Positions 5,396-64,000 of a DNA stretch of 64,000 nucleotides are shown here, in pieces. This stretch comes from Nocardioides aquaticus (GTDB lineage: Bacteria > Actinomycetota > Actinomycetes > Propionibacteriales > Nocardioidaceae): assembly GCF_018459925.1 (NCBI RefSeq), contig NZ_CP075371.1, positions 620,001-684,000 of the forward strand, in the 5' to 3' direction. The notes below the pieces were generated by a model. The model saw only the letters and a list, made by a program, of their open reading frames with translations. It did no database searches and was not told the origin of the DNA. How positions within the stretch are numbered: the first letter of the stretch is position 1; every line of letters begins with the position of its first letter. The position numbers and the translations under genes are program-made.

Positions 5396-6751
5396 GTGAG
5401 CGAGCACCGTACGGACCCCGCCGCCCCCGCCCCCTCGGCCCCGCCCGCGTCCGACGCCCGCGACGGGCTGCTGACCGTGCTGGTCGTCGGCACCGGCGGG
5501 CGCGAGCACGCGCTGGCCCGGGCCCTGGCCCGCGACCCCGGCGTGCGCGCCGTCCACGCCGCCCCGGGCAACCCGGGCATGCGCGCGGTGGCCGAGCTGC
5601 ACGACGTGGACCCGATGGACGGGGCGGCCGTGGCCGACCTCGCCGTGGCCCTCGGCGCGGGGCTCGTGGTGGTCGGTCCCGAGGCGCCGCTGGTCGCCGG
5701 GGTCGGCGACGTGGTCCGCGAGCGGGGCGTGCCGGTCTTCGGGCCGACCCGCGAGGCCGCCCGGCTGGAGGGCTCCAAGGCCTTCGCCAAGGACGTGATG
5801 GCCGCCGCGGGCGTGCCCACCGCGGCCGCCCGGGTCTGCACCACGCCCGCGGAGGCGGCCGCGGCGCTGGACGAGCTCGGCGCGCCGTACGTCGTCAAGG
5901 ACGACGGCCTCGCCGCAGGCAAGGGCGTCGTGGTGACCACCGACCGCGAGGAGGCGCTGGCGCACGCCGCGGCCTGCGAGCAGGTGGTGGTCGAGGAGTT
6001 CCTGGACGGCCCGGAGGTCTCGCTCTTCGCGATCACCGACGGCGTCACGATCCACCCGCTCCAGCCCGCGCAGGACTTCAAGCGGATCGGCGACGGCGAC
6101 GTCGGCCCGAACACCGGCGGCATGGGCGCCTACACGCCGCTGCCGTGGGCTCCGCCCGGCCTGGTCGACCAGGTGCTGCGCGAGGTGCTGCGTCCCACCG
6201 TGGAGGAGATGGCCCGGCGGGGGACGCCGTTCTCGGGCCTGCTGTACGCCGGCCTCGCGATGACCTCGCGGGGGGTGCGCGTGGTCGAGTTCAACGCCCG
6301 GTTCGGCGACCCCGAGACCCAGCCGCTGATGGCGCTGCTCGAGTCCCCGCTCTCCCCGCTGCTGCTCGGCGCCGCGACCAGGACCCTGGCCGACGTGCCG
6401 GCACCGTCGTGGCACCCCGGCTCCGCCGTCGCCGTCGTGCTGGCCAGCGCCGGGTACCCCGCCACCTCCTCCTCGGGCGACGTGATCCGTGGCCTCGACG
6501 ACGCCGAGGCCGCCGACGGGGTGCACGTCGTCCACGCCGGGACGGCCGAGGCGGGCGACGACGTCGTCACCGCCGGCGGGCGGGTGCTGGCGGTCGTCGG
6601 CACCGGCGCCGACCTGTCCGCGGCCCGCGCCACGGCGTACGACGGGGTCGCCCGGGTCTCCTTCCCCGGCGCCCAGCACCGCACCGACATCGCCCTGGTC
6701 GCCGCCCGGGACGAGGCGCAGGACCGGGCCCGGGAGAGGATGGACCCGTGA
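5396..6751 (+). CDS. purD: Phosphoribosylamine-glycine ligase (GAR synthetase)
   Basis: Joins phosphoribosylamine and glycine with ATP, step 2 of de novo purine synthesis. The 451-residue protein has an N-terminal extension of about 25 Ala/Pro-rich residues, then VLVVGTGGREHAL (family N-terminal motif), VVGPEAPLVAG, GSKAFAKDVM, the ATP-grasp region VVKDDGLAAGKGVVV, and GPNTGGMGAYTP followed by EFNARFGDPETQ. The GTG at 5396 is the best-placed start; an internal start nearer VLVVGTG cannot be excluded. Its TGA overlaps the GTG of purB (GTGA), so the two are translationally coupled. Confidence 0.95.
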   Translation: MSEHRTDPAAPAPSAPPASDARDGLLTVLVVGTGGREHALARALARDPGVRAVHAAPGNPGMRAVAELHDVDPMDGAAVADLAVALGAGLVVVGPEAPLVAGVGDVVRERGVPVFGPTREAARLEGSKAFAKDVMAAAGVPTAAARVCTTPAEAAAALDELGAPYVVKDDGLAAGKGVVVTTDREEALAHAAACEQVVVEEFLDGPEVSLFAITDGVTIHPLQPAQDFKRIGDGDVGPNTGGMGAYTPLPWAPPGLVDQVLREVLRPTVEEMARRGTPFSGLLYAGLAMTSRGVRVVEFNARFGDPETQPLMALLESPLSPLLLGAATRTLADVPAPSWHPGSAVAVVLASAGYPATSSSGDVIRGLDDAEAADGVHVVHAGTAEAGDDVVTAGGRVLAVVGTGADLSAARATAYDGVARVSFPGAQHRTDIALVAARDEAQDRARERMDP

Positions 6752-8166
6752 GCGTCCCCAACGTCCTGGCCACCCGCTACGCGAGCGCCGACCTCGCCCG
6801 GATCTGGTCGCCCGAGCACAAGATCGTGCTCGAGCGACAGCTGTGGATCGCGGTGCTCCGCGCCCAGCGCGACCTCGGCGTCGAGGTGCCCGACGGCGTC
6901 GTCGAGGCGTACGAGGCAGTCGTCGACCAGGTCGACCTCGCCTCGATCGCGGCACGCGAGCGGGTCACCCGCCACGACGTGAAGGCCCGGATCGAGGAGT
7001 TCTGCGCGCTGGCCGGGCACGAGCACGTCCACAAGGGGATGACCTCGCGCGACCTCACCGAGAACGTCGAGCAGCTCCAGGTGCGCCAGTCCCTGGCCCT
7101 GCTGCGGGACCGCGCGGTGGCCACGCTGGCGCGGCTCGCGCGGCTGGCCTCCGAGCACGAGCTGACCGTGATGGCCGGCCGCTCGCACAACGTCGCCGCG
7201 CAGGCCACCACGCTCGGCAAGCGGTTCGCGACCGTGGCCGACGAGCTGCTGGTCTCCCTCGAGCGCGTCGAGGAGCTGCTCGCGCGCTACCCGCTGCGGG
7301 GGATCAAGGGCCCGATGGGCACCTCGCAGGACATGCTCGACCTGCTCGACGGCGACGAGGCCCGCCTCGCCGAGCTCGAGGAGCGGGTCGCGACCCACCT
7401 CGGCTTCGCGCGCGTGCTGACCTCGGTCGGCCAGGTCTACCCGCGCTCGCTCGACTTCGACGTGCTGTCCGCGCTCGTGCAGCTGACCGCCGCACCCTCC
7501 AACCTGGCCACCACGATCCGACTCATGGCCGGCCACGAGCTGGTCACCGAGGGCTTCGTCGAGGGCCAGGTCGGCTCCTCGGCGATGCCGCACAAGATGA
7601 ACACCCGCTCCTGCGAGCGGGTCAACGGCCTGGCCGTGGTCACCCGCGGCTACCTCTCGATGGTCTCCGAGCTGGCCGGCGACCAGTGGAACGAGGGCGA
7701 CGTCTCCTGCTCGGTCGTGCGCCGGGTCGCCCTGCCCGACGCGTTCTTCGCCGTCGACGGGCTGTTCGAGACCTTCCTGACCGTGCTGGAGGAGTTCGGC
7801 GCGTTCCCAGCCGTGGTGGCCCGCGAGCTGGACCGCTACCTGCCGTTCCTGGCCACCACCAAGGTGCTGATGAGCGCGGTCCGCAACGGCGTGGGCCGCG
7901 AGAGCGCGCACGAGGCGATCAAGGAGGCCGCCGTCGGCACGGCGCTCGACATGCGCGCCGGGCAGGCCGAGAACGACGTGCTCGTGCGCCTGGCCGCCGA
8001 CGAGCGGCTGGGCCTGACCGAGGCGCAGCTCGCCGCGCTGGTGGCCGAGCCGATCACGTTCACCGGCGCCGCCGTGGCCCAGGTCCAGGCCGTCGTACGC
8101 CGGGTCGCGGCCGTGGTGGAGCAGCACCCCGCCGCCGCCGCGTACGCCCCCGGCGCGATCCTCTGA
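6748..8166 (+). CDS. purB: Adenylosuccinate lyase
   Basis: Cleaves SAICAR to AICAR and adenylosuccinate to AMP, releasing fumarate. It is a 472-residue member of the fumarase/aspartase superfamily. Visible signatures are the TSRDLTENVEQLQVRQS substrate segment, the catalytic-His region AGRSHNVAAQATT, KGPMGTSQDM, and the mobile signature loop GSSAMPHKMNTRSCERV (about residues 285-300). The GTG start at 6748 overlaps the purD stop by 4 bp, which fixes the start and indicates a purDB operon. Confidence 0.96.
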   Translation: MSVPNVLATRYASADLARIWSPEHKIVLERQLWIAVLRAQRDLGVEVPDGVVEAYEAVVDQVDLASIAARERVTRHDVKARIEEFCALAGHEHVHKGMTSRDLTENVEQLQVRQSLALLRDRAVATLARLARLASEHELTVMAGRSHNVAAQATTLGKRFATVADELLVSLERVEELLARYPLRGIKGPMGTSQDMLDLLDGDEARLAELEERVATHLGFARVLTSVGQVYPRSLDFDVLSALVQLTAAPSNLATTIRLMAGHELVTEGFVEGQVGSSAMPHKMNTRSCERVNGLAVVTRGYLSMVSELAGDQWNEGDVSCSVVRRVALPDAFFAVDGLFETFLTVLEEFGAFPAVVARELDRYLPFLATTKVLMSAVRNGVGRESAHEAIKEAAVGTALDMRAGQAENDVLVRLAADERLGLTEAQLAALVAEPITFTGAAVAQVQAVVRRVAAVVEQHPAAAAYAPGAIL

Positions 8167-56944: not shown

Positions 56945-57613
56945 ATGACCGCCCTCCTCCTCGGCTCCATCAGCACGCTCGCCGACACCTCCGAGATCCA
57001 GCGCGACGCCTTCAACCGGGCCTTCGCCCAGCACGGCCTCGACTGGGAGTGGGGCCAGGAGGAGTACCGCGGCCTGCTCCAGGGCAACGGCGGCAAGGAC
57101 CGCGTCGCCGACTACGCCCGCGAGCGCGGGCAGGACGTCGACGCCGCCGCCGTCCACGCCACGAAGTCCGAGCTCTACCAGGCCGCGCTGGCCGAGGCCG
57201 ACATCGCGCCGCGCGACGGCGTGGTGGAGACGATCCGCCAGGCGCAGGAGGCCGGCACCAAGGTCGCCCTGGTCACCACCACCTCGCGCGACAACATCGA
57301 CGCCCTGGGCCGCGCGCTGGCCGCGCACCTCGACCTGTCCGGCCTGGACCTCGTCGTCGACGCCTCCCAGGTCGACGCCTCCAAGCCCGACCCGGCCGCC
57401 TACCGCTACGCGCTGCAGCAGCTCGGCGAGGAGCCGGGCGCGTGCGTCGCGGTCGAGGACAACGTCGGCGGCGTCCAGGCCGCCAACGCCGCCGGGGTCG
57501 CCTCGGTGGCGTTCCCCAACGAGAACACCGCCGGCCACGACTTCTCCGCGGCGTCGGGCCGGCTCGAGCAGCTGACCCTGGTGGACCTGCAGGAGTACCT
57601 CGCCGCGTCCTGA
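56945..57613 (+). CDS. HAD-fold protein lacking the motif-I aspartates
   Basis: A 222-residue member of the HAD superfamily, similar overall to CbbY/phosphoglycolate-phosphatase-like enzymes. Cap-domain and later motifs are normal: motif [13 protein letters not shown], motif III Lys in [14 protein letters not shown], motif IV acid pair [18 protein letters not shown]. Motif I, normally F-D-x-D-G-T-L, reads [22 protein letters not shown], so both aspartates, including the nucleophile, are absent. The rest of the gene is intact, and I recall GSI(G/S)TL variants in other bacteria, so this looks like a conserved pseudo-phosphatase rather than decay. It lies 152 bp upstream of mysA in the same orientation, with a hairpin between. 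Confidence 0.82.
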
Positions 57614-57765: not shown

Positions 57766-59019
57766 ATGAGCGACCCCCAGGCCCGGCTCGAGGCCACCGA
57801 GAACGCCTTCCACGTCGAGGCCTACGAGAAGATCGACTACTCGCTGCTCCTCACGCCCCACGTCTTCGACCCGGCGCGCCCCGAGCTCGCCGACACCTTC
57901 CGCCCCTTCGGGCGCTGCCTGATGGTGATCGACGAGCAGGTCCAGGCCCTGCACGGCGAGCGCGCGCAGGCGTACTTCGACCACCACGGCATCGACCTCA
58001 CCGTCGTGGAGGTCCGGATCGCCGAGACCGCCAAGTCGCTGCGCACGCTCGAGGACATCGTCGACTCCTTCAGCGACTTCGGCCTGCTGCGCAAGGAGCA
58101 GGTCCTGGTCGTCGGCGGCGGCCTCACCACCGACGTGGCCGGCTTCGCGTGCGCCTCCTACAAGCGCACCACCGACTACGTGCGCATCCCGACCACCCTG
58201 ATCGGGCTGATCGACGCCAGCGTCTCGATCAAGGTCGGCGCCAACCACGGCAAGTTCAAGAACCGCCTCGGCGCCTACCACGCCTCGAAGAAGGTCTTCC
58301 TCGACTTCTCGCTGCTCCAGACGCTGCCGACCGACCAGGTCCGCAACGGCATCGCCGAGATCATCAAGATCGCGACCGTCTCCCACGCCGGCATCTTCGA
58401 GTCGCTGGAGAAGTACGGCGACGAGCTGCTGCACAGCGCCTTCGGGTACGCCGAGGGCGCCGAGCACCTGCGCGAGGTGTCGGACTCGATCACCTACGAC
58501 GCGATCCGCACCATGCTCGAGCTCGAGGTCCCGAACCTGCACGAGCTGGACCTGGACCGGGTGATCGCCTACGGCCACACCTGGAGCCCCACGCTCGAGC
58601 TCACGCCCGAGCCGCCCCTCTTCCACGGCCACGCGATCGCCGTCGACATGGCGTTCTCGGCCACCATCGCCGAGCAGCGCGGCTACATCACCACCGCCGA
58701 CCGCGACCGCGTGCTGGCGCTCTTCAGCCAGCTCGGCCTAGCGATCGACAGCCCGTACTTCACCGCCGAGCTCGTCGAGCGGGCCACGGCGTCGATCCTG
58801 CAGACCCGCGACGGCAAGCTGCGCGCGGCCGTGCCGCGCCCGATCGGCACCTGCCACTTCGTCAACGACCTCACGACCGAGGAGCTCGCCACGATCCTGG
58901 CCGAGCACAAGCGCGTCGCCGCGGGCTACCCGCGCGGCGGTGAGGGCGTCGACCAGTACACCTCGAGCGAGAAGGTCGGCCCGCAGGTCCCCGAGCTGCC
59001 CGAGGCCGCCAGTGCCTGA
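57766..59019 (+). CDS. mysA: Desmethyl-4-deoxygadusol synthase (sugar phosphate cyclase) of mycosporine-like amino acid biosynthesis
   Basis: Cyclises sedoheptulose 7-phosphate to desmethyl-4-deoxygadusol, the first step to mycosporines. The 417-residue enzyme belongs to the dehydroquinate-synthase-like cyclases. NAD+ and metal site segments are [67 protein letters not shown], and the zinc ligands Glu in [11 protein letters not shown], His in [11 protein letters not shown] and His in [48 protein letters not shown] and [11 protein letters not shown] are shared with cyanobacterial MysA rather than with 2-epi-5-epi-valiolone synthases. ATG 57766 follows AGGAGA. It is the first gene of a tight five-gene operon. 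Confidence 0.93.
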
Positions 59020-59833
59020 CCCGCGTCCGGTCACGCCGCTGGGCATCGCCGCCGACCTGCTGGAGCAGGTGGAGAAGCGCCTGGCCGGGGTGGACGGCGT
59101 CGGCGACGACGTCCGGGCCGACCTGGCCCGGGCCACGTCGCTGGTCGCCGGCCTCGACCCGTACGTCGCGGCGGTCACCAGCCCGGCCTCGCCGGCGCTC
59201 GAGGCGCTCGAGACGCGGACCCGCCAGGCCGACTGGGGCACCCGCACCGAGCAGGCCGGCCTGGTGCTGGAGCAGGAGATGCTCTCGGGGCACGTCGAGG
59301 GCCGCTTCCTGGCCTTCCTGGTGCACGCCACCCGGGCCCGTCGGGTGCTCGAGGTCGGCATGTTCACCGGCTACTCCGCGCTGACCATGGCCGAGGCGGT
59401 CGGTGCCGGCGGCAGCGTCGTGGCCTGCGAGCTCGACCCGGCCACCGCGGCCTTCGCCCAGGACTGCTTCGCCTCCTCCGAGGCCGGCGAGCGGATCACC
59501 GTCGAGGTCGGCCCCGCCGCCGACACCCTCGTCCGGCTCGCCGACGACGGCGCGCTCTTCGACCTGGTCTTCGTCGACGCCGACAAGCCCGGGTACGCCG
59601 GCTACCTCGACGCCGTGCTCGGCACCGGTCCGGACGACCCGGGGCTGCTCGCCGACGGCGGCGTGGTCTGCGTCGACAACACCCTGCTGCAGGGCGAGCC
59701 CTGGGCGGCGACGGCCGGGTCGGCCAACGGCCGGGCGGTGGCGGCGTTCAACGAGCGGGTGGCCGCCGACCCGCGGGTCGAGCAGGTGCTGGTGCCGCTG
59801 CGCGACGGCGTCACCCTGCTGCGACGGGTCTGA
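59012..59833 (+). CDS. mysB: O-methyltransferase forming 4-deoxygadusol
   Basis: SAM-dependent methylation of the mysA product to 4-deoxygadusol. The 273-residue protein is a caffeoyl-CoA-OMT-like enzyme with a MysB-type N-terminal extension ([30 protein letters not shown]). The catalytic domain has [25 protein letters not shown] motif [29 protein letters not shown], and the metal/SAM aspartates in [16 protein letters not shown] and [10 protein letters not shown]. It ends [22 protein letters not shown], the typical MysB C-terminus. GTG 59012 overlaps mysA by 8 bp, so the two are coupled. mysC begins 2 bp after its stop. Confidence 0.92.
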
Positions 59834-59835
59834 GG

Positions 59836-61179
59836 GTGCGGGTGACGACGGCGGCACGCACACGGGGCCGGACCGTGGGCCGGACGCTGGGGGCGCTCGC
59901 GCTGCTGCAGGCGACGCTCCCGGTCGACTCCGTCGTGACCGCCGCGGCCCTGCTGCGCCGGCGACGCGCCGAGCCCGCGCCGGCGGCGCAGCGCCGCACG
60001 GTCCTGGTCAGCGGCGGGAAAATGTCGAAGTCGCTGGTCCTGGCCCGGGCCTTCCACGCCGCCGGCCACCGCGTGGTGCTGGTGGAGTCCGGCCGCTACC
60101 GGCTGACCGCGCACCGGTTCTCCCGCGCCGTGGACGCCTTCCGGGTCGTGCCCCACGAGACGGACCCGGCGTACGCCGCGGCGCTCGTCGAGGTCGCCCG
60201 CAGCGAGGGCGCCGACGTCTACGTCCCGGTGTGCAGCCCGGCCTCCAGCATCGCCGACGCCGACGTGCGCGCGGACCTGGAGGCGGTCGGCTGCGAGGTC
60301 GTCCACCTCGGCCCCGCCGACCTGCGGATGGTCGACGACAAGGCGTCCTTCGCCGAGGCCGCGGTGGCCGCCGGCCTGGCCGTGCCGGACTCGTACCGGA
60401 TCACCGACCCCCAGCAGGTGCTGGACCTCGACCTCGCCGGCCGGCCGCGGCCCTACATCCTCAAGTCCATCCCGTACGACCCCGTGCGCCGCCTCGACCT
60501 GACCCTGCTGCCGCGCCCCACCCGCGCCGAGACCGAGGCGTTCGTCCGCTCGCTGCCGATCTCGCCCGAGCAGCCGTGGATCCTCCAGGAGTTCGTCGAG
60601 GGCACGGAGTACTGCACCCACGGCACCGTCCGCGACGGCCGGCTCCAAATGCACGTCTGCTGCCGGTCCTCGGCCTGGCAGCTGACCTACGACCACGTCG
60701 ACCACCCCGGCATCCGGGCGTGGGTCGAGACCTTCGTGGCCGCGCAGGGCGAGGGCTTCACCGGGCAGGTCTCGCTGGACTTCATCGAGGACGCCGACGG
60801 CGTCGTGCGGGCGATCGAGTGCAACCCCCGCACGCACTCCGCGATCACGCTGCTGGACGGCCACCCGGGGCTCGCCGCGGCGTACCTCGAGGACGCCCCG
60901 GCCGGGGCGCCCGCCCTGGAGCCGGTCGGCGCGCGCCCGACGTACTGGACCTACCACGAGCTCTACCTCGGGCTGCGGCACCCGCGGTCGCTGCCGGGCC
61001 GGCTGCGCACCCTGCGCGGCGGGCGGGACGCCGTCTTCGACGCCGCCGACCCGGTGCCGTTCTGGTGGCTGCACCACGTGCACGTGCCGGCGCTGCTGCT
61101 CGGCAACCTGGTCCGGCTGCGGCCGTGGCTGAAGATCGACCTCAACATCGGCAAGCTCGTCGAGCCGGCGGGGGACTGA
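59836..61179 (+). CDS. mysC: ATP-grasp ligase, mycosporine-glycine synthase
   Basis: Attaches glycine to 4-deoxygadusol to give mycosporine-glycine. The 447-residue protein begins with a basic, partly hydrophobic N-terminus (RTVGRTLGALALLQATLPVDSVVTAA), then TVLVSGGKMSKSLVLARAFHAAGHRVVLVESGRYRLTAHRFSRAVD. The ATP-grasp core includes VYVPVCSPASS, RPYILKSIPYDPVRRLDLTLLPRPT, VRSLPISPEQPWILQEFVEGTEYCTHGTVRDGRL and AIECNPRTHSAITLLDGHPG. The C-terminal region (PTYWTYHELYL, DPVPFWWLHHVHVPALLLGNLVRLRPWLKIDLNIGKLVE) is specific to MysC. GTG 59836, 2 bp after mysB. Confidence 0.93.
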   Translation: MRVTTAARTRGRTVGRTLGALALLQATLPVDSVVTAAALLRRRRAEPAPAAQRRTVLVSGGKMSKSLVLARAFHAAGHRVVLVESGRYRLTAHRFSRAVDAFRVVPHETDPAYAAALVEVARSEGADVYVPVCSPASSIADADVRADLEAVGCEVVHLGPADLRMVDDKASFAEAAVAAGLAVPDSYRITDPQQVLDLDLAGRPRPYILKSIPYDPVRRLDLTLLPRPTRAETEAFVRSLPISPEQPWILQEFVEGTEYCTHGTVRDGRLQMHVCCRSSAWQLTYDHVDHPGIRAWVETFVAAQGEGFTGQVSLDFIEDADGVVRAIECNPRTHSAITLLDGHPGLAAAYLEDAPAGAPALEPVGARPTYWTYHELYLGLRHPRSLPGRLRTLRGGRDAVFDAADPVPFWWLHHVHVPALLLGNLVRLRPWLKIDLNIGKLVEPAGD

Positions 61180-61180
61180 G

Positions 61181-62260
61181 ATGACCGAGCCGACCGCCGT
61201 CACCGTGCTGCACCTCGCGGGCTCGTCGACCAGCGACTTCTACGCCGACGTCTCCCGGCTCTACGCCGCCGACTGCCTCGAGGCCACCGCGGGGGAGCGG
61301 TACGAGTTCCACGTCGCCTACGTGACCCCCGACGGCCGGTGGCGCTTCCCGGCCGACCTGTCCGCAGCCGCGATCGACGCCGCGGAGCCGACCGACCTGC
61401 CCGGTGCCGTCGCCCGCATCGCCGCGCTCGCGCCCGACGTGATGGTGCCGCAGATGTTCTGCGTGGCCGGGATGACCCACTACCGGGCGCTGTTCGACCT
61501 GCTCGGCGTGCCCTACCTCGGCAACACCCCCGACGTGATGGCGGTGGGCGCCGACAAGGCCCGCGCCTCGGCGGTCGTCGGCGCGCGTGGCGTCCGGGTG
61601 CCGGCCTCGCAGGTCGTCCGGCCCGGCGACGCGGTCACCCTCGACCTGCCGGTCGTGGTGAAGCCGGTCGACGCCGACAACTCCCTGGGCGTGACGCTGG
61701 TCCGCGACGCCGCCGACCTGCCCGCGGCCGTCGAGGCCGCCTGCGCGCACGCCGTCGGCGCGCGGCGGGCGCTGGTCGAGACCTACGTCGAGCTCGGCCG
61801 CGAGGTCCGCTGCGGCGTCGTCGACGTCGACGGGGAGCTGGTGGCGCTGCCGCTGGAGGAGTACGCCGTCGACGCCACCACCAAGCCGATCCGCGACGAG
61901 GCCGACAAGCTGCGTCGCGCCGAGGACGGAGAGCTCGGCCTGGTCGCCAAGGACGCCGAGCACGCCTGGATCGTGGCCGACGACGACCCCGTCGTCGCGC
62001 GCGTGCAGGAGGCCGCGCTGCGCTGCTACGACGCGTTGGGCTGCCGGCACTACGGGCTCTTCGACTTCCGGGTCGACCCCGACGGCGAGCCGTACTTCCT
62101 CGAGGCCGGCCTCTACTGCTCCTACGCCCGCACCAGCGTCGTGGCCGTGATGGCCGGCGCCGCCGGGATCGACCTCGACCGGCTGTTCGCCCTCGCCGTC
62201 GACGACGCCCTCACCAGCCCCCCAGCCAGCCCTGCCGCCCGTCCCCGACCCCAGGAGTGA
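61181..62260 (+). CDS. mysD: D-Ala-D-Ala ligase-like enzyme, forms disubstituted mycosporine-like amino acids
   Basis: Adds a second amino acid (commonly serine, threonine or another) to mycosporine-glycine, giving imino-mycosporines such as shinorine or porphyra-334. The 359-residue ATP-grasp protein has VLHLAGSSTSDFYADVSRLYAADCLEAT, YVTPDGRWRFPADLS, VMVPQMFCVAGMTHYRALFDLLGVPYLGNTPDVMAVGADKARA, VVVKPVDADNSLGVTLV, GREVRCGVVDVDGELVALPLEEY and CRHYGLFDFRVDPDGEPYFLEAGLYCSYA. These match MysD and not peptidoglycan Ddl. ATG 61181 directly follows mysC (1 bp). The amino acid added cannot be read from sequence. Confidence 0.92.
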   Translation: MTEPTAVTVLHLAGSSTSDFYADVSRLYAADCLEATAGERYEFHVAYVTPDGRWRFPADLSAAAIDAAEPTDLPGAVARIAALAPDVMVPQMFCVAGMTHYRALFDLLGVPYLGNTPDVMAVGADKARASAVVGARGVRVPASQVVRPGDAVTLDLPVVVKPVDADNSLGVTLVRDAADLPAAVEAACAHAVGARRALVETYVELGREVRCGVVDVDGELVALPLEEYAVDATTKPIRDEADKLRRAEDGELGLVAKDAEHAWIVADDDPVVARVQEAALRCYDALGCRHYGLFDFRVDPDGEPYFLEAGLYCSYARTSVVAVMAGAAGIDLDRLFALAVDDALTSPPASPAARPRPQE

Positions 62261-62262
62261 CC

Positions 62263-63039
62263 ATGCAGACCGAGATCCTCGAGCCCGTCGGCGTCCGCGT
62301 CACCGACGTCGACCTGACCCACCCCGACGCCGACCTGTGGCCGGTGCTGCGCGCGCTGCTCGCCGAGCACGGTGTGGCGGTGCTGCCCGGCCAGGAGATC
62401 GACGACGACGCGTTCCTCGCCTTCCTGCAGGGCTTCGGCGAGCTCGCCTTCACCGCGGGCGAGACGCCCCTGGAGGGCTACCCCGACCTGAACCTGATCA
62501 GCAACGTCGGGCGCGAGACGCCGCCGGTGAGCAACTTCCACGTCGACACCTCCTACGTCGCGCAGCCCCCGGCGTACACCGCGCTGCGCGCGGTGAGCAT
62601 CCCCGCGGCCGGCGGCGCGACGCAGTTCACCAACCAGTACCGCGCCTACGAGACGCTGCCGGCCGACCTGTGCGAGACGCTCGAGGGCCGCACGATCACC
62701 CACGTGGTGACCGGCGTCGACCTCGGCCCCGACGACGAGGCCGCCGCCGACCACCCGGTCTTCCGCCCGCACCCGGTCACCGGCCGCCCGGCGCTGTACC
62801 TGACCAGCCCGAAGCGCTGCTCGGCGATCAGCGGGATGAGCCCGGCGGAGACCGAGGAGACGGTCGCGACGCTGCTGGCCCACTCCACCCGCCCCGAGAA
62901 CGTCCTCGACCACGCCTGGGCGCCCGGCGACGTCGTGATCTGGGACAACGCCGCCGTCCTCCACCGTGCCGACCACGCCGGCGTCGTGGGCGACCGGGTC
63001 ATGCACCGCGGGATGGTCGGGGCGTACGCCGCGGGCTGA
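62263..63039 (+). CDS. TauD/TfdA-type Fe(II)/2-oxoglutarate dioxygenase in the mys operon
   Basis: A 258-residue non-heme iron oxygenase. The 2-His-1-carboxylate triad is visible as His93-x-Asp95 (NFHVDTSYVAQPPAY) and His234 (WDNAAVLHRADHAG), with Arg245 or Arg249 (GDRVMHRGMV) to bind 2-oxoglutarate. SIPAAGGATQFTNQYRAYETLP and HPVFRPHPVTGRPALYL are TauD/TfdA-like. The ribosome site CAGGAG overlaps the mysD stop, and the start is 2 bp later, so it is the fifth gene of the operon. In cyanobacteria an oxygenase named MysH, which I recall as phytanoyl-CoA-dioxygenase type, turns disubstituted mycosporines into palythines. This unrelated-looking oxygenase could do that or another tailoring step. 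Function is inference. Confidence 0.85.
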   Translation: MQTEILEPVGVRVTDVDLTHPDADLWPVLRALLAEHGVAVLPGQEIDDDAFLAFLQGFGELAFTAGETPLEGYPDLNLISNVGRETPPVSNFHVDTSYVAQPPAYTALRAVSIPAAGGATQFTNQYRAYETLPADLCETLEGRTITHVVTGVDLGPDDEAAADHPVFRPHPVTGRPALYLTSPKRCSAISGMSPAETEETVATLLAHSTRPENVLDHAWAPGDVVIWDNAAVLHRADHAGVVGDRVMHRGMVGAYAAG

Positions 63040-63042
63040 CCC

Positions 63043-63261
63043 TCAGCAGCACCGACCCTGGGTCGCGCCCTCCCGCACGTGGTCGCGGTGGCGCTCGAAC
63101 GCGCGGCGGGTCATCGGCTCGGTGCCGTCGCGGTCGCAGCGGGCCAGGTACTCGTCCCACTTCGCCTCGCCGCTGAGCTCCCGGGCGTACCAGCGCACGC
63201 CGGCCAGCGCCCGGCGTACGGGCCCCGGGCCCGGCACGGCCCGCGCCGTCGGGGCGCTCAC
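63043..63261 (-). CDS. YbdD/YjiX-family small protein (DUF466)
   Basis: A 72-residue protein: ALAGVRWYARELSGEAKWDEYLARCDRDGTEPMTRRAFERHRDHV and a terminal GRCC, all typical for the small partner that accompanies CstA-type pyruvate/peptide transporters. The GTG start overlaps the cstA stop by 4 bp (GTGA). Its stop lies 3 bp from the convergent dioxygenase stop. It may be needed for transporter assembly or activity; the mechanism is unknown. Confidence 0.88.
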   Translation of the reverse strand: MSAPTARAVPGPGPVRRALAGVRWYARELSGEAKWDEYLARCDRDGTEPMTRRAFERHRDHVREGATQGRCC

Positions 63262-64000
63262 CGTCGGGCCCCCACGTCCTCGTGCTGCCGCTCCTCCCAG
63301 GCGCGCACGGCCTCCTTCTCCTCCGCCGTGGCGACGAAGTCGGCCGGGGCGACCAGCTGCGAGGGCTGGGCCGGGACCTCGGTGGTCGGCAGCGACCCGC
63401 GGCTGATCGCGCGCACCCACACCAGCACGGCGTTCGCGAGGATCACCAGCACGAGCACTGCGAAGCTGGCCTGCAGGATCCCGTTGAGGGTCGAGTTGAA
63501 GACGACGGTGTCCATCTGGCTCGCGTCCGTCGCCGGGGCGAGCACCTCGCCGGCGTCGCGGGCGGCGCGGTAGCGGTCGGCCTGGGCGAAGTACCCGATC
63601 AGCGGGTTGTCGGAGAAGACCTTCTGGTAGCTCGCGGTCATCGTCACCACGAGGTCCCACACCAGCGGGATGCCCGGCACCCAGACCCACCTCAGCCAGC
63701 CGTGCTTGAGGAACAGCGTCACGCAGAGCGTCAGCGCGATCGCGGCCAGGAGCTGGTTGGCGATGCCGAACAGCGGGAAGAGCTGGTTGATGCCGCCCAG
63801 CGGGTCGGTCACCCCGACGTAGAGCATGTAGCCCCAGCAGGCGACCACGACCGCCGAGGCCGACCACGACGCGGGCTTCCAGGAGGTGTCGCCGAAGCGC
63901 TTCCAGACGTTGCCGACGGTGTCTTGGAGCATGAAGCGGCCCACGCGGGTGCCGGCGTCGACGGCGGTCAGGATGAACAGCGCCTCGAACATGATCGCGA
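63258..64000 (-). CDS. cstA: CstA-family transporter (C-terminal part; N-terminus beyond window)
   Basis: Carbon-starvation protein A family, uptake of pyruvate or peptides at the cytoplasmic membrane. Only the C-terminal 247 or so codons are present. Membrane segments are visible in MFEALFILTAVDAGTRVGRFMLQD, SASAVVVACWGYMLYVG, GINQLFPLFGIANQLLAAIALTLCVTLFL and ASFAVLVLVILANAVLVWVRA. The DAGTRVGRFM and GGINQLFPLFGIANQLLA segments are family signatures. A cytoplasmic charged tail ends the protein. It is coupled to ybdD. The 5' end lies beyond position 64000. Confidence 0.92.
   Translation of the reverse strand, partial: AIMFEALFILTAVDAGTRVGRFMLQDTVGNVWKRFGDTSWKPASWSASAVVVACWGYMLYVGVTDPLGGINQLFPLFGIANQLLAAIALTLCVTLFLKHGWLRWVWVPGIPLVWDLVVTMTASYQKVFSDNPLIGYFAQADRYRAARDAGEVLAPATDASQMDTVVFNSTLNGILQASFAVLVLVILANAVLVWVRAISRGSLPTTEVPAQPSQLVAPADFVATAEEKEAVRAWEERQHEDVGARR

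What the first reader, a model, noticed from the sequence alone, without database searches (positions are those of the whole stretch)
57766..63039. Actinobacterial mycosporine (UV-sunscreen) operon with an unusual fifth gene
Five genes are packed end to end: overlap 8 bp, then gaps of 2, 1 and 2 bp. They encode clear mysA, mysB, mysC and mysD products followed by a TauD/TfdA-type dioxygenase. The palythine-forming oxygenase known from cyanobacteria (MysH) is, as I recall, of the phytanoyl-CoA-dioxygenase type. A TauD-type enzyme tied to mysD would therefore be a separate invention, giving palythine-like or hydroxylated/dealkylated mycosporines. The tight coupling argues that it acts on the mysD product.
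Basis: partly seen in the sequence, partly recalled or inferred. Interest (0 to 1): 0.88.

Follow-up and report, generated by a model that had tools for sequence, protein, structure and literature searches.

The report
Bacterial sunscreen operon with inactivated phosphatase
A Nocardioides-like bacterium carries a compact set of genes for a natural UV sunscreen that includes an iron enzyme likely to trim the finished molecule and a phosphatase-like protein that has lost its catalytic residues yet is kept in related actinobacterial gene sets.

Summary
In detail: mysA-mysB-mysC-mysD-TauD at 57766-63039, spaced -8/+2/+1/+2 bp. The cluster type is in print: GATOR-GC (PMC11888242) reported HAD and TauD/TfdA as conserved in actinobacterial MAA clusters and cited unpublished work in which a Rhodococcus operon gave shinorine, palythine and palythine-serine. 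Another TauD-type MAA enzyme, MysI, is named in Nostoc (PMC10510106). TauD keeps its Fe/2-oxoglutarate residues in 56 of 56 rows and has lost most taurine-binding ones; it is neither MysH's family nor near MysI candidates. Best reading: it dealkylates MysD products to palythines. What I did not find in print is that the HAD, a relative of the phosphatase CbbY, has lost both catalytic aspartates (DxDGT to GSIST) in 55 of 55 mys loci while keeping most of the cleft. It lies directly before mysA in 50 of 50 actinobacterial loci where that stretch is present, and pairs with TauD in some cyanobacteria, once apart from mysABCD. It should not be a classical HAD phosphatase; its role is open. mysABC without HAD makes mycosporine-glycine in Streptomyces (PMC11284840), so it likely acts later.

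The parts
56945..57613 (+).
   Evidence: Pfam HAD matches begin after motif I; 120 of 120 listed homologues have the GS motif and none DxDGT; closest solved relative CbbY 4uat/4uar
57766..59019 (+). mysA, demethyl-4-deoxygadusol synthase type (name of the reaction recalled)
   Evidence: PF01761 3.8e-30; 5tpr 4.7e-167
59012..59833 (+). mysB, O-methyltransferase
   Evidence: PF01596 4.6e-42
59836..61179 (+). mysC, ATP-grasp-like ligase that adds the first amino acid (role recalled)
   Evidence: NCBIfam PRK06849 365 bits, below its cut-off of 406; conserved in mys loci
61181..62260 (+). mysD, D-Ala-D-Ala-ligase-like ligase that adds the second amino acid (role recalled)
   Evidence: PF07478 3.9e-18
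62263..63039 (+). TauD/TfdA-family Fe(II)/2-oxoglutarate oxygenase, 258 aa; likely palythine-forming
   Evidence: PF02668 5.2e-55; Fe and 2OG residues H93, D95, H234, R245 in 56 of 56 mys-type rows; model pLDDT 95.2 with TauD-fold matches

Best explanation
This is a six-gene mycosporine-like amino acid (MAA) cluster, HAD-mysA-mysB-mysC-mysD-TauD. MysA-D make a disubstituted MAA of the shinorine type from sedoheptulose 7-phosphate (established pathway, recalled). The TauD-type oxygenase then hydroxylates the alpha carbon of a glycine nitrogen substituent of the MysD product; the hydroxylated arm breaks off as glyoxylate and leaves a palythine-type MAA. The HAD is a re-purposed CbbY: it keeps the fold and most of the substrate cleft but lacks the Asp nucleophile and the Asp acid/base, so it should not work as a classical HAD phosphatase. 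It most likely serves the late part of the pathway as a ligand-binding or non-phosphatase catalytic partner. Shown: gene order, families, residue conservation, linkage. Inferred: the reaction, the substrate, and every statement about the role of the HAD.
For: TauD match in 52 of 53 actinobacterial loci and in 20 of 23 mysC-bearing genomes of the window's family (the 20 include G422, where it is split). Fe/2OG residues in 56 of 56 rows; of five taurine residues (roles recalled) H70, Y73, F159 and F206 are replaced (F206 position is Arg in 56 of 56) and R270 is kept. TauD distances track mysD most closely (partial r 0.53, 44 loci; crude). Second-hand: an R. fascians D188 operon with HAD and TauD gave shinorine, palythine and palythine-serine in S. 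coelicolor (PMC11888242). HAD: motif I lost in 55 of 55 loci and in 27 of 27 HADs fetched with mysA in the same stretch, against 12 of 13 HADs without mys genes in their stretch that keep DxDGT. Cleft residues R20, W34, W36, Y41, G49, G50, R53, H71, K74, K147 and E171 kept in 57 of 57 rows and D172 in 56 of 57 (that they line the cleft rests on recalled CbbY and HAD knowledge). dN/dS 0.16 for HAD and 0.17 for mysC between the window and L011. HAD directly upstream of mysA on the same strand in all 51 non-cyanobacterial loci that hold both (50 actinobacterial plus L036), median gap 32 bp, 7 with a 4 bp overlap. HAD and TauD together in 4 of 25 cyanobacterial loci, neither in 21, and as a pair 9 bp apart in genome G701, with no mysA-D match in the 20 kb around it. 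mysABC alone makes about 150 mg/L mycosporine-glycine (PMC11284840).
Against: The product of this cluster was not measured. The palythine result is a conference abstract known only through a citing paper. HAD distances do not single out TauD (partial r 0.26 with TauD, 0.36 with mysB, 0.27 with mysA). The mys-TauD group is not strongly supported (72/92). In the window HAD and mysA are 152 bp apart, more than in any of the 51 measured loci (maximum 142), so one transcript is not shown here. One search reports one TGA inside the HAD match of G589, and one TGA inside the TauD matches of G437 and of one of two in G400; in L018, which has G437's contig length, the TauD ORF is 257 aa, but the other two were not examined.
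Confidence: 0.62

Rival explanations
1. The HAD acts at the start of the pathway: a catalytically dead CbbY that binds sedoheptulose 7-phosphate or a related sugar phosphate and channels it to MysA or regulates its supply.
For: CbbY acts on xylulose 1,5-bisphosphate (PMC10212915, passages); much of the cleft and the motif III Lys are kept; HAD lies directly before mysA, sometimes overlapping it; HAD is kept where TauD is lost.
Against: R. fascians mysABC without HAD gives about 150 mg/L mycosporine-glycine in Streptomyces (PMC11284840), unless the host supplies a substitute; 21 of 25 cyanobacterial mys loci show no HAD (8 of the 25 are shorter than 17 kb); the CbbY residues E17 and H20 are Ser and Gln in 57 of 57.
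Confidence: 0.22
2. The TauD enzyme acts on MAAs but not to form palythine: it hydroxylates the ring or a side chain, or acts on the C3 amino acid as proposed for MysI.
For: No enzyme assay for this clade appears in what I saw; PMC10510106 proposes a different position for MysI.
Against: The cited R. fascians operon result gave palythine and palythine-serine (PMC11888242).
Confidence: 0.2
3. The HAD is a decaying relic carried along by operon structure.
For: Both catalytic Asp are gone.
Against: The replacement is itself fixed in the rows examined, actinobacterial and cyanobacterial (G7 and S8 in 57 of 57); dN/dS 0.16; found as a pair with TauD away from mys genes.
Confidence: 0.05
4. The fifth gene is an ordinary taurine or sulfonate dioxygenase placed there by chance.
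For: It belongs to the TauD family.
Against: 52 of 53 linkage; most taurine residues replaced; only 1 of 21 family genomes with a close TauD lacks mysC, and that one (G664) holds a 120-residue piece.
Confidence: 0.02

Closest known systems
Actinobacterial MAA clusters with HAD and TauD/TfdA (GATOR-GC, PMC11888242; passages seen)
   Same: Same gene content: MAA core genes plus HAD and TauD/TfdA in Actinomycetota
   Different: The main text has 0 occurrences of active site, catalytic residue or motif, so the lost HAD catalytic site is not discussed there in those words; it states that HAD and TauD were not present in Cyanobacteriota, whereas I find both in 4 of 25 cyanobacterial mys loci plus one separate pair
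MysI of Nostoc sp. UHCC 0926 (PMC10510106; passages seen)
   Same: TauD/TfdA-family dioxygenase in an MAA pathway, proposed to form a palythine
   Different: MysI sits with mysF and the NRPS mysE; five candidates found here by that context are 383-388 aa and far from the window TauD (258 aa) in the tree
MysH, palythine-forming oxygenase (described in passages of PMC10510106; the primary paper is not held)
   Same: Oxygenase with the same proposed outcome
   Different: MysH is of phytanoyl-CoA dioxygenase type; the window protein matches PF02668 only
CbbY, xylulose-1,5-bisphosphate phosphatase (4uat, 4uar)
   Same: Best sequence and fold match of the HAD: profile E 1.8e-55, TM (query) 0.85-0.87
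   Different: Catalytic Asp8 and Asp10 (CbbY numbering) are Gly and Ile/Leu; Glu17 and His20 are Ser and Gln
PHM/PAL peptide amidation (recalled, no call)
   Same: Hydroxylation of a glycine alpha carbon followed by a separate lyase step is the analogy for a TauD-HAD pair
   Different: Unrelated protein families; the lyase role of the HAD is speculation

Membership tests
HAD-mysABCD-TauD actinobacterial MAA cluster | MAA core genes with HAD and TauD/TfdA side by side | tested here: met
TauD/TfdA family (PF02668) | Family match above cut-off | tested here: met
   187.6 bits against a cut-off of 27
TauD/TfdA family (PF02668) | HxD...H iron site and 2OG-binding Arg | tested here: met
   H93, D95, H234, R245 in 56 of 56 rows
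Taurine dioxygenase (TauD proper) | Taurine-binding residues H70, Y73, F159, F206, R270 (roles recalled) | tested here: not met
   Only R270 is kept; F206 position is Arg in 56 of 56
MysH | Phytanoyl-CoA dioxygenase family | tested here: not met
   PF02668 is the only Pfam family listed at E 0.001
MysI | Context with mysF and NRPS mysE, and clade membership | tested here: not met
   mysD and no mysE next to the window gene; five context-identified MysI candidates fall far away, on a long branch whose place is unsure.
Palythine-forming oxygenase (function) | Converts shinorine-type MAA to palythine | not testable with these tools
   Needs an enzyme assay or LC-MS
CbbY XuBP phosphatase | CbbY fold and sequence | tested here: met
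CbbY XuBP phosphatase | DxD motif I nucleophile and acid/base | tested here: not met
   G7 in 57 of 57, I9 in 55 and L9 in 2 of 57; Asp at both in 7 of 7 canonical rows

The most novel reading that the evidence does not exclude
The HAD is a new kind of HAD-fold enzyme that works without the Asp nucleophile: it completes or channels the breakdown of the TauD product (a hydroxyglycyl-MAA) to palythine and glyoxylate, making HAD and TauD a portable two-enzyme N-dealkylation module shared by actinobacteria and some cyanobacteria.
Probability: 0.18. Interest if true: 0.82.

Novelty: new variant of a known kind. Interest (0 to 1): 0.52.

Why it matters
MAAs are commercial sunscreen candidates, and how actinobacteria turn shinorine into palythine is unproven in what I could read. 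The TauD gene gives a direct test and would add a third enzyme type (beside MysH and the proposed MysI) for one outcome. The HAD matters more widely: a HAD-fold protein without its nucleophile, conserved in two phyla and tied to one pathway, is a clear case for asking what this fold does when phosphoryl transfer is removed. A bare HAD annotation would lead people to assay a phosphatase, which the sequence argues against.

Tried and rejected
Rejected: a chance-neighbour sulfur-scavenging TauD. Rejected: HAD as an ordinary phosphatase. Not counted as cyanobacterial: L036, labelled Melainabacteria, GC 0.72 against 0.46-0.50 for the four cyanobacterial loci with the pair and 0.45 for L147; I treat it as a mis-binned actinobacterial contig. 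MysI candidates were found instead through the NRPS MysE. No MysH sequence was obtained: of six genes near cyanobacterial mys genes tried as candidates, none was PhyH and one was a TauD. A search for a nucleophile-less HAD pseudoenzyme with four terms found 0 papers. Distance correlations were inconclusive for HAD.

Rows dropped before counts: from the TauD trees, L078 (312 aa), L085 (145, contig end) and L053 (160); from the second tree also L074, L127, L120 and five MysI candidates; from the distance test L018, L036, L053, L078, L085, the four cyanobacterial loci, and L066 and L072, which lack mysB or TauD; from the canonical comparison L113-L116. Alignments A2 and A3 used 62 and 55 chosen sequences, not all hits. 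One search kept 80 of 388 relatives, the best scoring, so the linkage counts lean towards close relatives; homologue lists show the best 120 of 1566 (HAD) and of 2356 (TauD). Some genomes recur between the locus sets (for example G578 and L011), so counts are not independent.
Full report
Observation. A further gene on the same strand precedes them: a 222-residue HAD-type protein at 56945-57613, 152 bp before mysA. In the window's genome the next TauD relative is one 321-residue ORF, with two partial matches of 35 and 40% identity.

Prior knowledge. Papers were seen as passages only. GATOR-GC (PMC11888242) found HAD and TauD/TfdA conserved in MAA clusters, present in Actinomycetota, Pseudomonadota and Bacillota but not Cyanobacteriota, and cites a 2018 conference abstract in which an R. 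fascians D188 operon with both genes gave shinorine, palythine and palythine-serine in S. coelicolor. PMC10510106 names MysI, a TauD/TfdA dioxygenase distinct from MysH, in Nostoc. The primary papers on MysH and on the first actinobacterial clusters are not held.

Linkage. A scan anchored on mysC, blind to TauD and HAD, kept the best 80 of 388 relatives as named loci. By record title 53 are actinobacterial, 25 cyanobacterial and 2 uncertain. Of the 53, 52 hold a TauD match (L053 with an internal deletion, L085 cut by the contig end); 50 hold HAD, and in the other three the contig starts 188 bp before mysA, inside mysB, or just before mysC. Order varies: with HAD and all four mys genes present, TauD is last in 30 loci, between mysB and mysC in 15, and before HAD in 2; single loci show other orders. 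In 294 genomes of the window's family, HAD (E up to 1e-40) occurs in 22, mysC (1e-60) in 23 and TauD (1e-30) in 21. All 22 HAD genomes carry mysC on the same contig within about 5 kb. The one mysC genome without HAD (G518) has mysC 661 bp from a contig start. Three of the 23 lack TauD (G214, G518, G536). Five further mysC genomes drawn at phylum level all have HAD. At phylum level with a looser threshold, 16 of 198 genomes match HAD: three strongly (below 1e-59), all with mysC, and 13 weakly (1e-22 to 1e-32).

TauD. Iron and 2OG residues are present in 56 of 56 rows; the residues I recall as taurine-binding are replaced except R270, with an invariant Arg at the F206 position. The AlphaFold2 model (pLDDT 95.2) matches herbicide-cleaving dioxygenases, PlaO1 and TauD. 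In the tree, 51 rows (50 loci, including L036, plus the window) group together (91/72) and five cyanobacterial ones form a second group (96/97). With long-branched rows left out, the 56 form one side of a branch against 11 other TauDs at 72/92, which is suggestive only. MysI candidates, recognised by mysF and mysE neighbours in Nostocaceae, lie on a very long branch.

HAD. The closest solved proteins are CbbY phosphatases; the model has pLDDT 95.7. Motif I, DxDGT in CbbY, reads GSIST or a close variant in 120 of the 120 listed homologues (1566 were found) and in 55 of 55 HADs in the mys loci. In a direct test, 27 of 27 HADs with mysA in the same fetched stretch have lost the motif, while 12 of 13 HAD relatives without mys genes in their stretch keep DxDGT and the thirteenth reads DLDAL. 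Seven cyanobacterial CbbY relatives keep DxDGT. The 57 lost-motif proteins form one side of a branch (95/91) against 11 others. Against the seven, the fixed changes include the catalytic and neighbouring positions (D to G, D to I/L, E to S, H to Q), while much of the cleft is unchanged. Purifying selection is like that on mysC (dN/dS 0.16 and 0.17 between the window and L011; TauD 0.26).

HAD and TauD as a pair. Four of 25 cyanobacterial mys loci carry both and 21 show neither (some of these loci are short). Three have the pair pointing away from mysA and one has HAD-TauD before mysA. Genome G701 has HAD and TauD 9 bp apart, with no mysA-D match in the surrounding 20 kb; its mysABCD lies elsewhere (L067). 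In 292 genomes drawn across that phylum the only strong HAD match was this one, so the pair is rare there. GC content of the genes is near that of their contigs, so I take them as resident; several of these genomes are metagenome bins. Against a strict partnership, HAD survives without TauD in G214 and G536 and beside broken TauD in L053 and G422.

Function. R. fascians mysABC without HAD made about 150 mg/L mycosporine-glycine in S. albidoflavus (PMC11284840), so the HAD is not needed for the first three steps in that host. Together with the pairing, this points to the later steps. I favour TauD as the palythine-forming oxygenase acting on the MysD product (about 0.7) and HAD as a non-phosphatase partner of the late pathway (about 0.5), the rest going to an entry-step sugar-phosphate role or something unforeseen. 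None of this is shown by experiment here.

Novelty. The TauD part is a new member of a reported cluster type. I found no report of the lost HAD catalytic site: one search gave two papers, of which one is GATOR-GC; none of the 12 listed of 46 papers contains the word mycosporine; one search gave none; and GATOR-GC does not use the words active site, catalytic residue or motif. Subscription papers are mostly not held, so this is not proof of absence.

Noticed in passing
L074:9058-9825: Symplocastrum torsivum mys cluster holds a different TauD-family gene (255 aa, PF02668 1.1e-26) between mysB and mysC, far in sequence from the actinobacterial type; its place in the tree is unsure.
   Followed up: partly
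G400 contigs C12 and C35: One genome of the window's family carries two mysC genes and two TauD genes on separate contigs, so possibly two MAA clusters.
   Followed up: no
L053:12315-12671 and L201:6410-7140: TauD genes with an internal deletion or split in two pieces while HAD and mysA-D still match beside them: apparent natural losses of the late step.
   Followed up: partly
L066:9892-10001: Mycobacterium sp. MAG cluster with mysA and mysC but no mysB match.
   Followed up: no
L203 (G664:C67) 6477-6833: A 120-residue TauD piece, 70% identical, in a genome without a mysC or HAD match: a possible remnant of a lost cluster.
   Followed up: no
L148:9455-10276, L149:9362-10183, L150:9208-10023: Cyanobacterial TauD-family genes that directly follow a gene family resembling isocyanide synthases (resemblance recalled, not tested).
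   Followed up: no
window 63258-63992 (-): The operon is followed by a convergent carbon-starvation protein CstA gene (PF02554).
   Followed up: no
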